DNA from: a virus
Virus record (IMG/VR): IMGVR_UViG_3300044655_001194
Span: 1 to 29,349 of that record
Reading direction: 5' to 3' (one strand)
Length of the DNA stretch: 29,349 nt
The notes under the pieces were generated by a model. The model saw only the letters and a list, made by a program, of their open reading frames with translations. It did no database searches and had not been told where the DNA came from. Below are positions 1,232-23,432 of the stretch, in pieces; position 1 is the stretch's first letter, and each line of letters begins with the position of its first letter. The position numbers were made by a program, and so were the translations under genes.

Positions 1232-3073
1232 TTATATTGCCTTATCAATTAAAAGGTCATATCTTGATTTGTTAATTTGATCTGATTCCAATAAATTAAG
1301 AGCAATAGCTTTTAATTCGTCTTTTGTTTTTCCATCATATTTATAGACATCAGCAACCTTACCAAGGTTTGTGCCATTTACAGTTCCATTGTTATTAATG
1401 ACTTGAATTGATACCCTTGGGTTATCCTTGTAATAATCAGCCAGTTCTCTAATGGTATTAGATGCGCCAGTGTGCGCTCTCAACAATACATCAATGCTAA
1501 CCGCCCGATCCCTTTTGGCATTAAATTCCAATGCTTTAGTAATTGGAGTGTTTGTATATACAATTGCTACTGGACTATTAGTTAATTCTAAAGCCTGTTC
1601 AATTTTTGCTTTAGCAGAATTAAAACTACCCAAGACTGAATCATAAATAAGCGGATCTTTACCTAAATTAAGAATCTCGCTTGCCATTCTAGTTGTTGTT
1701 GATTTTCCAGATCCACTGCCACCAGCAGTAAACAATGTTGGGCGCATATCTTTTGATTTTTCTTTTGCTTTTAAAGCATCGGCATATAACTCTTTTGCTA
1801 AATAAGAGCTAGGTTCATGCACAGCCGCAACTAAATCTCTGTTTCTGACAAAATCAAAACTTAGAGTTTTTGCTAAATCTGGATCAATTACATTGCCATA
1901 AAGTTCACGGTATTTATTCATCAATCCTTTTTTATCTGCTGTTATGGCATTATAGAATTTAGTTTCTACCGTTTTCTCTTGTTCAGTAAGATTTGGTGAT
2001 CTAATAAAATTATCTGGGGCAATTGCATCAAATGCTTTAGCGTTGCGGGTCTTTAACTCATTTAAAGTGTAAACATGACCAGTAGGGCTGACAAACTTAT
2101 CAATAGGTAATCCGCCATCTCTAAATAACTTGGCTTTAGTTACCCCAAGCACCTCGTTTTGCCTCTCTACGGACTGTTTTTTCAGCCACTCTTGATAAGT
2201 GGTCTTTGCTGGCACTTGTCCATCCATTGATGCTCTAGTGCTTTCTGGCAGATCTACATCCAATCCTAATTCTCTGAATGACTTGATCACAGCGACATAT
2301 CGACTGCGGCATCTAAAGTGGGCAGGGATTGATGGTTTAGGCTCACCAAGTGGGTAATAGTTGCCATCTCGGCTGGCGCATAACTCGGTAGTGCGTGTAT
2401 CTAGCGTTGCAGTATATCGATATCCCTTAATGATATCCTCATTGGCATCATATAAGGCTTGTTGGGCTACATTCGCAGTATGAGCAATAGCAGTCAATAC
2501 AACCGACTCTGCATTTGCTCTAGTGATGTTCATAATGCCGTCAGTGTAATTAAGAGCCTTAGTTCCTCTGATCTTATTCACTATCTCGCCAGTGGTTTGA
2601 CTTTCAATAAAACCGATACGCACCGCATCTCTAATTAAATTAGCTTTTTGCGTTTCCATTCCAGACAAAAACTCTTTTAAAAATTTACCTTGAAACGGAG
2701 TAGCGATAGCCGCCGCATAAACCGCCTCTGCTGAAATAGGCAAAACTTTTACTGGTTGAACGCTACCAATAAGTTTTTGCTGATAACTGACTTCCTCTTG
2801 CGAGAATTGCTTTAGATCGAGGTTTAACTGATCCGATACTTTTGTGTAGGCATTAGAATTAATATCATTGACTGATCTTAATAACGCTTTTATGCGACTG
2901 ATCTTTTCTGGGCTAGGAATAACTTTGTTTAATTCAAGAGTTAATCTATTAAATAAATCTACATCCGCTTTGTTAAGTATATTAATAATCTTTTTGGTAA
3001 TGGCATTACTATACCCAAGCACATCAATGGCATGAGATATTTCCTTGTTGAGTAGTTTTTCGTTTACATTCAT
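1232..3073 (-). CDS. MuF-type minor head protein fused to a zeta-toxin-like kinase domain
   Basis: This 613-residue protein has two recognisable parts. Residues about 110-265 carry the phage head morphogenesis (SPP1 gp7/MuF) signature: RANAESVVLTAIAHTA, LDTRTTELCASRDG at 224-237 and PAHFRCRSR near 250-258. Residues about 380-600 resemble zeta-toxin kinases, with the P-loop TAGGSGSGKSTTT (Walker A about 451-459), YDSVLGSFNSAK (Asp478 as a possible catalytic or substrate residue), then NAKRDRAVSIDVLLRAHTGA and RVSIQVINNNG. Zeta/PezT enzymes phosphorylate UDP-N-acetylglucosamine and poison wall synthesis. MuF proteins with variable C-terminal toxin domains are known in phages. The gene lies between the collagen-like gene and a 53-aa ORF. 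The domain calls are confident. That the kinase is active, or is delivered into cells with the DNA, is inference. Confidence 0.85.
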   Translation of the reverse strand: MNVNEKLLNKEISHAIDVLGYSNAITKKIINILNKADVDLFNRLTLELNKVIPSPEKISRIKALLRSVNDINSNAYTKVSDQLNLDLKQFSQEEVSYQQKLIGSVQPVKVLPISAEAVYAAAIATPFQGKFLKEFLSGMETQKANLIRDAVRIGFIESQTTGEIVNKIRGTKALNYTDGIMNITRANAESVVLTAIAHTANVAQQALYDANEDIIKGYRYTATLDTRTTELCASRDGNYYPLGEPKPSIPAHFRCRSRYVAVIKSFRELGLDVDLPESTRASMDGQVPAKTTYQEWLKKQSVERQNEVLGVTKAKLFRDGGLPIDKFVSPTGHVYTLNELKTRNAKAFDAIAPDNFIRSPNLTEQEKTVETKFYNAITADKKGLMNKYRELYGNVIDPDLAKTLSFDFVRNRDLVAAVHEPSSYLAKELYADALKAKEKSKDMRPTLFTAGGSGSGKSTTTRMASEILNLGKDPLIYDSVLGSFNSAKAKIEQALELTNSPVAIVYTNTPITKALEFNAKRDRAVSIDVLLRAHTGASNTIRELADYYKDNPRVSIQVINNNGTVNGTNLGKVADVYKYDGKTKDELKAIALNLLESDQINKSRYDLLIDKAI

Positions 3074-4233
3074 TATGCAATGCTTGTAATCAAGCCACCT
3101 AGTACAGTGATTGTTTTTCCATCAGCAGAGGTAAAGCTACCACTAGCCCCTTGATACTTTTCCCATAAGTTAGTTGAACTATTGAATTTTAGTAGATCAT
3201 TGTTTGCTGGGGATCGAGCAGATACATTGTGCAACTCATCCATCTCATAGCCATTCTGTATTCTTACCTCAATAGCCCCTTGGTTTTGATGGCTACGGGT
3301 AACAATGCCGACATAAACCAAATGCGCTGGGGCATATTGTTTAATATTTGTATAACTTCCTGCAACCGTACTACTTAGATATAACTGTGCGCCCTCTGCA
3401 AATGCAGATGTATTTAATCCGACTAACTGACCAAATACAGTAGCATAGCCATTTTGATTGTTTGAAATATTGGCAGTGATAATACCCATAGTTTGTGCGC
3501 TTGTTGCATCACCAGTGGCTATTGCCCTTGATACAACCGCTTTGTTACCTGCCGCACCACTAATATAGACAACTGTACCCTTAGTCATTACAGAGCCAGA
3601 TTCGTTACGCACTTGGGCTAATAAGGTAGATGCTGGGGATGCCTCTGATACTTGTACATTTGCAATATTGCCAGTCTGGGTTACGACTATACTGCCGTCA
3701 TCTGAAGTTATTTCAGTTATACCACCAGTGCCGCGCGGACCTTGCGCACCCGTAGCCCCTTGCGGACCACGTAAATCAACGGCTTTACCGTATTCACCAG
3801 GTTTAATTTCAAACTTTAAATAGGTGTCTTCCCATTTATGTTTTGGCATTGGGCCAATATCGCCCTTATCGCCCTTATCGCCTTTTGGGCCAGTTGCACC
3901 GGTTAAACCTTTATCTCCGCGTGAGCCAGTGTCACCCTTATCGCCTTTTTCACCACGGATACCAATATCACCTTGTTCCCCGCGATCACCTTTATCACCC
4001 TTCTCACCGCGTGGACCCATTGGGCCGACATCGCCTTGGTCACCTTTATCGCCTTTAGGGCCGGGTTCGCCTTGGATGCCTACTTCACCTATTAGGCCGC
4101 GTTCGCCTGTCTCACCTTGTAAACCGCGTTCACCAATACTACCTTGGATGCCTTGGTCACCTTTAGCCGCCTTCTTTTTTGCAAGAAGCGCGGCACCCAA
4201 GGTAATTGCAAGCAGTTTATTACTATCAACCAT
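3073..4233 (-). CDS. Collagen-like virion protein
   Basis: This 386-residue protein starts with a short hydrophobic, Lys-ending segment (LLAITLGAALLAKKK). Residues 25 to about 129 are an uninterrupted run of roughly 35 Gly-X-Y triplets, rich in GDKGD and GERG, and a second short triplet run lies at about 156-170. The C-terminal half contains VRNESGSVMTKGTVVYISGA, LVYVGIVTRSHQNQGAIEVR and GYEMDELHNVSARSP, a module I associate with tail-fibre and head-decoration proteins of aquatic phages. The gene overlaps the portal gene by 8 bases and the MuF gene by 1, so it is made with the head. It probably forms trimeric fibres on the particle. Whether it is a head fibre or a tail appendage cannot be read from the sequence. 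Confidence 0.8.
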   Translation of the reverse strand: MVDSNKLLAITLGAALLAKKKAAKGDQGIQGSIGERGLQGETGERGLIGEVGIQGEPGPKGDKGDQGDVGPMGPRGEKGDKGDRGEQGDIGIRGEKGDKGDTGSRGDKGLTGATGPKGDKGDKGDIGPMPKHKWEDTYLKFEIKPGEYGKAVDLRGPQGATGAQGPRGTGGITEITSDDGSIVVTQTGNIANVQVSEASPASTLLAQVRNESGSVMTKGTVVYISGAAGNKAVVSRAIATGDATSAQTMGIITANISNNQNGYATVFGQLVGLNTSAFAEGAQLYLSSTVAGSYTNIKQYAPAHLVYVGIVTRSHQNQGAIEVRIQNGYEMDELHNVSARSPANNDLLKFNSSTNLWEKYQGASGSFTSADGKTITVLGGLITSIA

Positions 4234-18088: not shown

Positions 18089-18102
18089 TGCGTAAAACTA
18101 AA

Positions 18103-18140
18103 CTCATAGTTTACAAACAGAACAAAATGTAAACTATGAG
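18103..18140 (-). terminator. Terminator downstream of pqqA
   Basis: CTCATAGTTTACA (18103-18115) and TGTAAACTATGAG (18128-18140) form a perfect 13-bp stem with a 12-base loop. On the minus strand it starts 24 bases after the pqqA stop and is followed by TTTAGTTTT. This makes pqqA a separate unit, shielded from the converging early operon. Confidence 0.65.
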
Positions 18141-18163
18141 CTATGTTTAAACAAATGTTTAGA

Positions 18164-18235
18164 CTATTTGTTCATAACGTACATTGTAACTTCAAAGCCA
18201 AAACGCATTTCGGTAGCTGCTGGTGATGTCCACAT
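18164..18235 (-). CDS. pqqA: PqqA, pyrroloquinoline quinone precursor peptide
   Basis: This minus-strand gene encodes exactly 23 residues, starting MWTSPAATEMRFG and ending FEVTMYVMNK. AGGAG lies 7 bases before the ATG. Bacterial PqqA peptides are about 23 residues, begin MW, carry Pro5, and share R.G.EVT.Y with Glu15 and Tyr19 as the two residues joined by the radical-SAM enzyme PqqE (with PqqD) to form PQQ; Klebsiella PqqA has them at the same positions. Both are present here at 15 and 19. PQQ is the cofactor of periplasmic methanol and glucose dehydrogenases. The gene lies opposite to the surrounding early genes, with its own terminator and a divergent control region. No other pqq gene is present, so it must rely on host PqqB-E. 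Boosting host methanol oxidation is inference. Confidence 0.92.
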   Translation of the reverse strand: MWTSPAATEMRFGFEVTMYVMNK

Positions 18236-18348
18236 GGTAGATCTCCTTAAGTCGATTGAGTGTACACATCAAGGTGTACGTGTACACATTCTCAGCTTTT
18301 GTATATACATTGTATATACGGATAACCATTATTTTAATTAGGAGATAT
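18236..18348. promoter_or_regulatory. Divergent control region with repeated dyads
   Basis: Between pqqA (minus) and the 63-aa gene (plus) lie two identical palindromes GTGTACAC (18260-18267 and 18280-18287, exactly 20 bases apart, with a half-site at 18274-18279). Two more, GTATATAC (18301-18308 and 18312-18319), are 11 bases apart. Spacing of one and two helical turns suggests cooperative operator sites. Both ribosome sites (AGGAG on each strand) lie at the edges. No textbook -35/-10 pair is clear. Confidence 0.6.
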
Positions 18349-18540
18349 ATGTCAGTACATAAATTATTTGGGAAAGCACAAGATTACTTTTCTCACATGG
18401 TTGGCAAAAAGATTGAAGAAGTGGCTGTATTCAACGATGAGTTGGTTATATTTTTAGATGACAAATCTGAGGTTTGTCTTTTTGATAGTGAGAATGGCCT
18501 AGCCATGCAAATCAATTTAAAACCTGAATTGGATGATTAA
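18349..18540 (+). CDS. Hypothetical protein, 63 aa
   Basis: The start at 18349 is preferred because AGGAG lies 4 bases upstream; the open frame extends to 18256, but that part crosses the dyad region. The protein starts MSVHKLFGKAQDYFSHMVGK and continues with VAVFNDELVIFLDDKSEVCLF, a compact beta-rich acidic fold. I recognise no family. It is first in a short plus-strand unit with the next gene directly adjacent. Confidence 0.7.
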   Translation: MSVHKLFGKAQDYFSHMVGKKIEEVAVFNDELVIFLDDKSEVCLFDSENGLAMQINLKPELDD

Positions 18541-22496: not shown

Positions 22497-23432
22497 ATGA
22501 ATAAAATTATAGTTGGCGATTGTCGTGAAAGTTTAAAATCTTTAGATGAGAAAAGTGTTCAAATGTGTGTAACTAGCCCCCCTTATTACGGCTTAAGAGA
22601 TTATGGCGTAGAAGGTCAATTAGGTTTAGAACAAACGCCTGAAGAATATATACAAGCAATGGTTGAAGTATTTAGAGAAGTACATCGCGTATTAAAAGAC
22701 GATGGGACATTATGGTTAAATATTGGCGATAGTTATTATAATTATCGCCCTGGCAAAGGTCAGGCTTTAGTTAAACAAACTGTATCAAATAGCAAACAAG
22801 ATTTGCCAGATACTTGCGCTCGCCGAGCTAATAAATTAGAAGGTCTTAAAGAAAAAGATTTGATTGGTATTCCTTGGATGTTAGCTTTTGCTTTAAGGGC
22901 TGATGGTTGGTATTTACGTCAAGATATTATTTGGCACAAACCAAACCCAATGCCAGAATCAGTTAAAGATAGATGCACTAAAGCACACGAATATGTTTTT
23001 TTATTAACTAAGCAGCCAAAGTATTATTACGATGCAGATGCAATTAGAACACCTTTAAAAGAAGTAACTAAAAAGCGAGTTGAATCCTCATGGGATTGCG
23101 ATAGAGCAAATATGTCTGCTGAAGGTGCACAAGGTATTCATGTTGAAAAGATGGGTACTAGATTTGCCCCTGAAGCTGGAGCAAATAAAAGAAGTGTATG
23201 GTCTATCCCAACTCAATCATATAAAGGCGCTCATTTTGCTACATTTCCAGTTGGATTAGTTGAACCATGTATTTTGGCTGGTAGCAAAGAAAATGATATT
23301 ATTTTAGATCCGTTTATCGGCAGTGGAACTACTGCTCAAGTTTCTATTGCAAATAATAGGCAATATATTGGATGTGAACTTAATCCTGAGTATTCAATAT
23401 TACAATCTAAACGTATTAAGGAAACTAAATGA
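22497..23432 (+). CDS. DNA methyltransferase, N6-adenine/N4-cytosine type
   Basis: The 311 residues begin MNKIIVGDCRESLKSLDEKS and show motif IV TSPPYYGLRDYG (26-37) before motif I DPFIGSGTT (271-279). That order is typical of beta-class amino-methyltransferases. SPPY is shared by N6-adenine and N4-cytosine enzymes, so the base cannot be fixed. Conserved WLNIGDSYYN, DLIGIPWMLAFALR and GWYLRQDIIWHKPNPMPES blocks are present. It probably protects phage DNA from host restriction; no nuclease partner is adjacent. GGAG lies 9 bases before the ATG. The gene is visibly more AT-rich at third codon positions than the polymerase behind it and follows a terminator, which suggests separate acquisition. 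Confidence 0.93.
   Translation: MNKIIVGDCRESLKSLDEKSVQMCVTSPPYYGLRDYGVEGQLGLEQTPEEYIQAMVEVFREVHRVLKDDGTLWLNIGDSYYNYRPGKGQALVKQTVSNSKQDLPDTCARRANKLEGLKEKDLIGIPWMLAFALRADGWYLRQDIIWHKPNPMPESVKDRCTKAHEYVFLLTKQPKYYYDADAIRTPLKEVTKKRVESSWDCDRANMSAEGAQGIHVEKMGTRFAPEAGANKRSVWSIPTQSYKGAHFATFPVGLVEPCILAGSKENDIILDPFIGSGTTAQVSIANNRQYIGCELNPEYSILQSKRIKETK

What the first reader, a model, noticed from the sequence alone, without database searches (positions are those of the whole stretch)
18164..18235. A phage-encoded PqqA, the PQQ cofactor precursor peptide
Seen: a 23-codon gene with a good ribosome site whose product starts MW, has Pro5 and carries GFEVTMY with Glu15 and Tyr19 at the exact positions crosslinked in known PqqA. 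Known: PqqA is converted by PqqE/PqqD and others into PQQ, cofactor of methanol dehydrogenases and other quinoproteins. Inferred: this is an auxiliary metabolic gene that raises or sustains PQQ-dependent methanol oxidation in an infected methylotroph. Ordinary gene callers with a length cutoff would miss it.
Basis: partly seen in the sequence, partly recalled or inferred. Interest (0 to 1): 0.95.

Follow-up and report, generated by a model that had tools for sequence, protein, structure and literature searches.

The report
Phage-borne pqqA gene with host-type promoter
A tiny 23-amino-acid gene in this virus is a genuine copy of the bacterial peptide from which the redox cofactor PQQ is made, and the same easily overlooked gene, often with a host-style on-switch, sits in many otherwise unrelated viruses of methanol-eating bacteria, which suggests these viruses keep their host's methanol oxidation supplied during infection.

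Summary
The product, MWTSPAATEMRFGFEVTMYVMNK, passes Pfam PF08042 and NCBIfam TIGR02107 well above cut-off. It differs by one residue from the commonest Methylophilaceae PqqA. IMG/VR holds well over 120 viral records with such ORFs. Phage isolates P19250A, MEP301, Venkman, MEP401/402 and Melnitz carry it without being annotated as such. Viral copies are under strong purifying selection (pN/pS 0.10); with an N-terminal probe, 152/152 keep Glu15 and Tyr19. Only pqqA is carried: none of nine records tested has PqqE, and 2/32 large records have a methanol-dehydrogenase-like gene. New here: (i) it is widespread and missed in cultured methylophages; (ii) in this phage it is a ~190-bp promoter-pqqA cassette shared with unrelated phages; (iii) 160/217 viral pqqA upstreams carry a box where class II activators bind, matching a dyad upstream of host pqqA copies, pqqB and tldD. 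Best reading: the phage supplies the consumable precursor under host PQQ control; host enzymes finish PQQ. Expression, processing and benefit are untested.

The parts
18164..18235 (-). pqqA CDS, MWTSPAATEMRFGFEVTMYVMNK
   Evidence: translation; PF08042 37.9 bits and TIGR02107 34.4 bits, both over cut-off
18243..18248 (-). ribosome-binding site AAGGAG, 7 nt before ATG
   Evidence: sequence; GGA-type RBS precedes nearly all viral pqqA ORFs
18314..18333 (-). predicted activator box AATAATGGTTATCCGTATAT
   Evidence: best match of the viral pqqA box on either strand of the window, 17.2 bits against 10.0 for the next
18288..18293 (-). predicted -10 hexamer GAGAAT, 36 nt after the box ATG
   Evidence: viral pqqA promoters peak at 35-36 nt from box to -10; the window hexamer itself is weak (4/6); position read
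18260..18279 (-). 5'-UTR hairpin GUACAC/GUGUAC (TSS predicted near 18281)
   Evidence: folds at -6.9 kcal/mol; weak alone (z -0.58) but hairpins recur in 91 distinct viral UTRs, mean z -2.6
18094..18142 (-). terminator-like hairpin (15 bp, 12-nt loop) and U-rich tail UUUAGUUUU
   Evidence: -18.3 kcal/mol, z -6.05; not listed by the consensus terminator scan, which allows loops of 3-8 nt
18141..18333 (-). ~190-bp cassette: box, promoter, 5'UTR, pqqA and the start of its 3' flank
   Evidence: 77-94% DNA identity over all or most of it to otherwise unrelated viral contigs L092, L065, L070, L050, L045 (L157 75%, L278 71%)
18349..18540 (+). divergent neighbour gene (63 aa, unknown), first of the + strand block that includes the helicase, exonuclease, SSB, methylase and DNA polymerase genes
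   Evidence: ORF list; no PHROG hit; downstream genes identified by PHROGs

Best explanation
It is a functional phage pqqA: a self-contained transcription unit (activator box, -10, 5' hairpin, RBS, 23-codon gene, terminator hairpin) that a methylotroph's phage carries to keep PQQ being made during infection. PqqA is the one consumable of the pathway: one peptide is destroyed per PQQ, while PqqB-E and the protease are catalysts already present in the cell. A phage therefore needs to bring only pqqA. The host's own PQQ-regulon activator would switch the gene on through a box centred near -41.5; host PqqD/PqqE would crosslink Glu15 to Tyr19, and host protease, PqqB and PqqC would finish PQQ for the methanol dehydrogenases that power phage production. 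Shown: identity, selection, mobility, box and its host counterpart, absence of PqqE in the records tested. Inferred: use of the host activator, processing, energetic benefit, and that this record's host is a Methylophilaceae member.
For: Family membership well over curated cut-offs. Same peptide as hosts bar one residue; four peptides identical between viruses and hosts. Strong selection: 152/152 keep E15, T17, Y19, N22 and the stop in the part left free by the search pattern; pN/pS 0.10 at pS 0.71 over codons 15-23. pqqA alone is carried: no PqqE in the 9 records tested, window included; a PQQ-enzyme-domain ORF in 2/32 large records, both of the methanol/ethanol dehydrogenase family. Hosts also multiply pqqA alone: 120/120 Methylophilaceae genomes have it, 1-12 copies each. 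Box in 160/217 viral upstreams against 2/524 control pieces, -10 at 35-36 nt; host counterpart is a dyad in 35/40 genomes with one reversed-control hit, found upstream of pqqA copies, pqqB and tldD; distal host box to -10 peaks at 58 nt. Box tracks Methylophilaceae-like peptides: 151/179 against 9/38 others, p 6e-13. Cassette shared with otherwise unrelated contigs.
Against: No expression or biochemical data. The window's -10 (GAGAAT) is weak and its box has one T-to-A change from consensus. The box is not universal: Venkman and ctXG6705 lack it; Melnitz has the box without a -10 at the usual spacing, and MEP402 only a weak match. The box model was trained on the set it was then counted in, although it also peaks in host upstreams it was not trained on. 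The host activator is unidentified. The host of this record rests on the PqqA type, the box and distant terminase relatives in 4/187 Methylophilaceae genomes. Published engineering shows only modest PQQ gain from pqqAB overexpression (29% in Acetobacter pasteurianus, PMC7936290), so PqqA is not always limiting.
Confidence: 0.8

Rival explanations
1. Phage PqqA works as a decoy: it occupies PqqD/PqqE and lowers host PQQ, shutting methanol metabolism down.
For: A precursor peptide alone could titrate the chaperone PqqD; no PqqE is carried by the records tested.
Against: A decoy has no need of the crosslinked pair, yet E15/Y19 never vary; many viral peptides are identical to host substrates; two large phages carry pqqA together with a methanol-dehydrogenase-family gene.
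Confidence: 0.06
2. The extra PQQ serves to exclude superinfection: PQQ loads a PqqU-type outer-membrane receptor and blocks rival phages.
For: PQQ blocks PqqU-targeting phage IsaakIselin in E. coli (PMC12124388); an unrelated set of prophages carrying pqqA sits inside pqqU.
Against: No evidence that methylophages use PqqU; widespread carriage across very different phages of one metabolic guild fits metabolism better.
Confidence: 0.07
3. The important element is the box: phages carry it to titrate or tap the host activator, and pqqA comes along.
For: Box is the most conserved part of the upstream region and sits in most viral upstreams.
Against: 57 of 217 viral copies score no box while keeping the ORF; the ORF is under strong codon-level selection.
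Confidence: 0.03
4. A passively transduced host gene without function.
For: Peptides are nearly identical to host ones.
Against: pN/pS 0.10 with near-saturated synonymous sites; no neighbour family is shared by more than 28 of 225 loci; phage-specific promoter spacing (35-36 nt against 58 in hosts).
Confidence: 0.02

Closest known systems
Host PqqA (PF08042 / TIGR02107), Methylophilaceae type
   Same: Length, W2, P5, G13, E15, V16, T17, Y19; 22/23 residues equal to MWTTPAATEMRFGFEVTMYVMNK; solitary extra copies also occur in hosts; related box upstream
   Different: Phage-borne, shorter upstream region with one box close to -10 instead of the host's distal dyad plus second TTCATGA site
PqqA of Lake Baikal virus VP_266 (PMC7678222, 2020)
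   Same: Viral PqqA in a predicted Methylophilaceae virus; same proposed role
   Different: There on a T4-like genome with a methanol dehydrogenase gene; here a ~29-kb record with GpA-type terminase and pqqA alone. That paper stated P19250A carries none of its AMGs, but P19250A does encode an unannotated PqqA
Cyanophage psbA and other auxiliary metabolic genes (own knowledge)
   Different: Here a 23-aa peptide precursor of a cofactor, not an enzyme subunit, with host-regulon-type control
Morons (lambdoid phages; own knowledge)
   Same: Single gene with its own promoter and terminator inserted between phage genes, in either orientation
   Different: In the window a ~190-bp unit with one 23-codon gene

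Membership tests
PqqA (PF08042 / TIGR02107) | Scores above curated cut-offs | tested here: met
   37.9 against 21.1 and 34.4 against 20 bits
PqqA (PF08042 / TIGR02107) | Conserved E-x3-Y pair that becomes PQQ, kept under selection in viral relatives | tested here: met
   E15/Y19 in window; 152/152 viral relatives found with a pattern ending at residue 14; pN/pS 0.10
PqqA (PF08042 / TIGR02107) | Bound by PqqD and crosslinked by PqqE | not testable with these tools
   needs biochemistry
Auxiliary metabolic gene | Lies on a genuine phage genome | tested here: met
   virus record with terminase, portal, polymerase, endolysin
Auxiliary metabolic gene | Host carries the pathway it feeds | tested here: inconclusive
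   pqqA in 120/120 Methylophilaceae genomes and pqqB seen, but the host of this record is inferred
Auxiliary metabolic gene | Expressed in infection and changes host metabolism | not testable with these tools
   no transcript or physiology data
Moron-like cassette | Own promoter and terminator, inserted among genes of other orientation, mobile between phages | tested here: met
   by prediction only: box and -10, hairpin z -6, minus-strand gene between + strand genes, cassette in unrelated contigs
Member of a PQQ-biosynthesis regulon | Same operator as host pqq genes | tested here: inconclusive
   sequence match and position only; regulator not identified

The most novel reading that the evidence does not exclude
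Phages of methylotrophs very generally carry a tiny pqqA cassette wired into the host's PQQ regulon by a captured activator box: a psbA-like rule for C1 metabolism that annotation overlooked, from ~35-kb phages to a 356-kb record.
Probability: 0.6. Interest if true: 0.82.

Novelty: new variant of a known kind. Interest (0 to 1): 0.72.

Why it matters
If right, cultured methylophages described without PQQ genes all along carry a 23-codon gene aimed at the cofactor of methanol oxidation, a major step in C1 cycling in fresh and sea water. It gives a directly testable case of a phage supplying the consumed substrate of a cofactor pathway and borrowing a host regulon to do so, and it shows that gene-length cut-offs hide auxiliary genes. 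The predicted PQQ box (pqqA, pqqB, tldD) would also be a handle on how methylotrophs control PQQ synthesis.

Tried and rejected
'Acinetobacter phage MD-2021a' hits rejected as phage PqqA: they lie in a bacterial pqqBCD-moaA operon. Escherichia phage ERS-1 hit rejected (E = 10). The sigma-70 scan of the window found nothing above shuffles. Grouping loci by shared neighbours with single linkage merged most into one group because phages share modules; neighbour-family counts were used instead. The GTGTACAC/GTATATAC palindromes upstream were first suspected as operators; they occur in only 5 viral upstreams each, and GTGTACAC is better read as part of the variable 5' hairpin. The two phage methanol-dehydrogenase genes have no box upstream. 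No paper describing such a box was found. PDB by sequence: no match for the 23-mer.

Full report
OBSERVATION. The ORF is real and at the stated coordinates, on the minus strand: ATG 18235-18233, TAG ending at 18164, AAGGAG 7 nt upstream. It encodes MWTSPAATEMRFGFEVTMYVMNK, with Pro5, Glu15 and Tyr19 as claimed. Pfam PqqA scores 37.9 bits (cut-off 21.1) and the NCBIfam equivalog TIGR02107 34.4 bits (cut-off 20). In a search of the record it is the only PqqA match, and 14 control genomes give none. The record is a virus record from IMG/VR of 29,349 bp with GpA-type terminase, portal, head morphogenesis, tail fibre, primase, DNA polymerase, exonuclease, SSB, methyltransferase and endolysin genes.

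IT IS NOT ALONE. A tblastn search of 50,697 phage records found PqqA at 73-96% identity in every one of nine Methylophilales/Methylophilaceae phage records it returned (P19250A, MEP301, Venkman, MEP401, MEP402, four Melnitz) and in metagenomic phage ctXG6705. In none is it annotated as PqqA: in P19250A, MEP301, Venkman and MEP401/402 no feature lies there; in ctXG6705 and Melnitz an opposite-strand hypothetical ORF is drawn over it. The papers on MEP401/402, MEP301 and Melnitz do not mention PQQ genes. Phages of these hosts without a hit could not be listed, so the true fraction is unknown. A second query of Pseudomonas-like type added no other phage group. The other hits are host DNA labelled as phage (Acinetobacter MD-2021a, a pqq operon) or chance (ERS-1, E = 10).

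Of 226 viral loci read, 225 carry a recognisable PqqA ORF, nearly all with a GGA-type RBS, in 86 distinct peptides. The one exception by my finder, L340, has the peptide without a nearby start codon. Carriers range from ~35-kb records to a 356-kb record.

SELECTION. The second scan used a pattern that ends at residue 14, so residues 15-23 are unconstrained by that search. All 152 viral sequences matching it (120 from that scan, the rest fetched by the others) keep Glu15, Thr17, Tyr19, Asn22 and a stop at codon 24. Over codons 15-23 of 126 distinct DNA sequences, pS is 0.71 and pN 0.07, ratio 0.10.

ONLY pqqA IS CARRIED. No PqqE equivalog is in the window or in eight large PqqA-bearing records tested; the radical-SAM genes in the larger records are not PqqE. 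Two of 32 large records have a PQQ-enzyme-domain ORF of ~620 aa, in both the methanol/ethanol dehydrogenase family. So the usual pattern is the precursor peptide by itself. Hosts do something similar: 120 of 120 Methylophilaceae genomes have PqqA, 1-12 copies each, and a methylotroph with five copies, three of them away from the pqq operons, is described in PMC9851590. From established knowledge, PqqA is consumed one per PQQ whereas PqqB-E are catalysts, so a phage that lets host synthesis fade would need to replace only the consumed part.

THE CASSETTE AND ITS BOX. In this window pqqA lies on the minus strand between + strand genes. Positions 18141-18333 (promoter region plus pqqA) match contigs L092 (94%), L070 (87%), L065 (83%) and, over most of the length, L050, L045, L157 and L278, whose remaining fetched sequence shows little or no similarity to the window. 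Across 225 viral loci the neighbours fall into 282 families, the largest shared by 28 loci. This is moron-like behaviour.

Upstream regions of viral pqqA share a box, consensus aTTaATGaTTTTccTTA. It occurs in 160 of 217 upstreams against 2 of 524 control pieces from the same contigs. A -10-like hexamer follows with a sharp preference for 35-36 nt from the box ATG, which centres the box near -41.5, the position of class II activators. The best match on either strand of this window is the one upstream of its pqqA (18333-18314, 17.2 bits; next 10.0). Its -10, GAGAAT at 18293-18288, is at 36 nt but is weak. Column information is high in the box and near zero beside it. A 5' hairpin of variable sequence follows in most phages (91 distinct UTRs, mean z -2.6, block shuffles); in the window alone it is not significant (z -0.58). 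A strong terminator-like hairpin follows pqqA (18142-18103 with a U-rich tail, z -6.05).

Host pqqA upstreams carry a related element, an inverted repeat CTMATGAWWWTCATKAG followed ~23 bp later by TTCATGA, with 58 nt from the first site to the -10; by spacing, the second host site falls where the phage box sits. The strict dyad is present in 35 of 40 Methylophilaceae genomes with one reversed-control hit. Of 56 fetched host box loci, 36 lie within 220 bp of a pqqA; others precede pqqB (L354, L395) and tldD (L372), whose product is linked to PQQ synthesis in Gluconobacter (own knowledge; tldD was co-expressed with pqqABCDE in work cited in PMC9851590), and glycine-zipper lipoprotein genes (L355, L363, L388, L402). 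Among viruses the box goes with Methylophilaceae-like peptides (151 of 179) rather than other PqqA types (9 of 38; p 6e-13; related contigs are not independent, so the p-value is indicative). The simplest reading is that phage pqqA is read by the host's own PQQ-regulon activator. That protein is unidentified, and the box model was trained on the phage set itself, though it also peaks in host upstreams it was not trained on. The box is not universal: Venkman and ctXG6705 lack it, MEP402 has only a weak match, and Melnitz has it without a -10 at the usual spacing.

HOST OF THIS RECORD. Inferred to be Methylophilaceae from the PqqA type, the box and terminase relatives (39-53% identity) in 4 of 187 Methylophilaceae genomes. 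This is suggestive, not proof.

PRIOR ART AND NOVELTY. Viral PqqA was reported in 2020 for Lake Baikal population VP_266, with methanol dehydrogenase, and the same role was proposed (PMC7678222). A 2026 reservoir study lists viral pqqA among P-cycling AMGs (PMC13188868). So the gene itself is a new member of a known kind. The overlooked presence in cultured methylophages, the stand-alone mobile cassette and the host-type box are, as far as the held papers show, new; hence 'new variant'.

MECHANISM, GRADED. Shown by sequence: identity, selection, mobility, box and spacing, absence of PqqE in tested records. Inferred: transcription by host activator, processing by host PqqB-E, sustained methanol dehydrogenase activity, benefit to the phage. 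Untested: all physiology.

Noticed in passing
L299:11040-11554, L317:1723-2420; also L284, L287, L293, L295, L296, L304, L321, L325, L332: Lambdoid-type prophage contigs whose end lies inside pqqU (yncD), the PQQ importer and phage receptor: PqqU is cut after ~88 residues, directly followed by a different pqqA (MWKKPAFIDMRLGLEVTLYISNR) with its own -10 and terminator, then phage genes. Host unknown; no match in E. coli genomes.
   Followed up: partly
L355, L363, L388, L402: Glycine-zipper lipoprotein genes carry the predicted PQQ box in four Methylophilaceae genomes.
   Followed up: partly
window 1232-3073 (-): Head-morphogenesis protein with an extra C-terminal part containing a P-loop (GGSGSGKST), like a kinase or zeta-type domain fused to a minor head protein.
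   Followed up: no
window 3073-4233 (-): Collagen-like Gly-X-Y repeats in a tail fibre protein.
   Followed up: no
window 22497-23432 (+): DNA methyltransferase gene 69-78% identical at DNA level, over part of its length, to cyanophage methylases, though the rest of the tested region is not cyanophage-like.
   Followed up: no
CAKLQF020000010.1 (L008): Record labelled 'Acinetobacter phage MD-2021a' carries a bacterial ppk and pqq operon: host DNA in a phage collection.
   Followed up: yes
L116, L283, L279, L302, L307: Other viral PqqA types (for example MWEKPTYLDLRLGFEVTLYVSIR) without the box, probably in phages of other PQQ producers.
   Followed up: no
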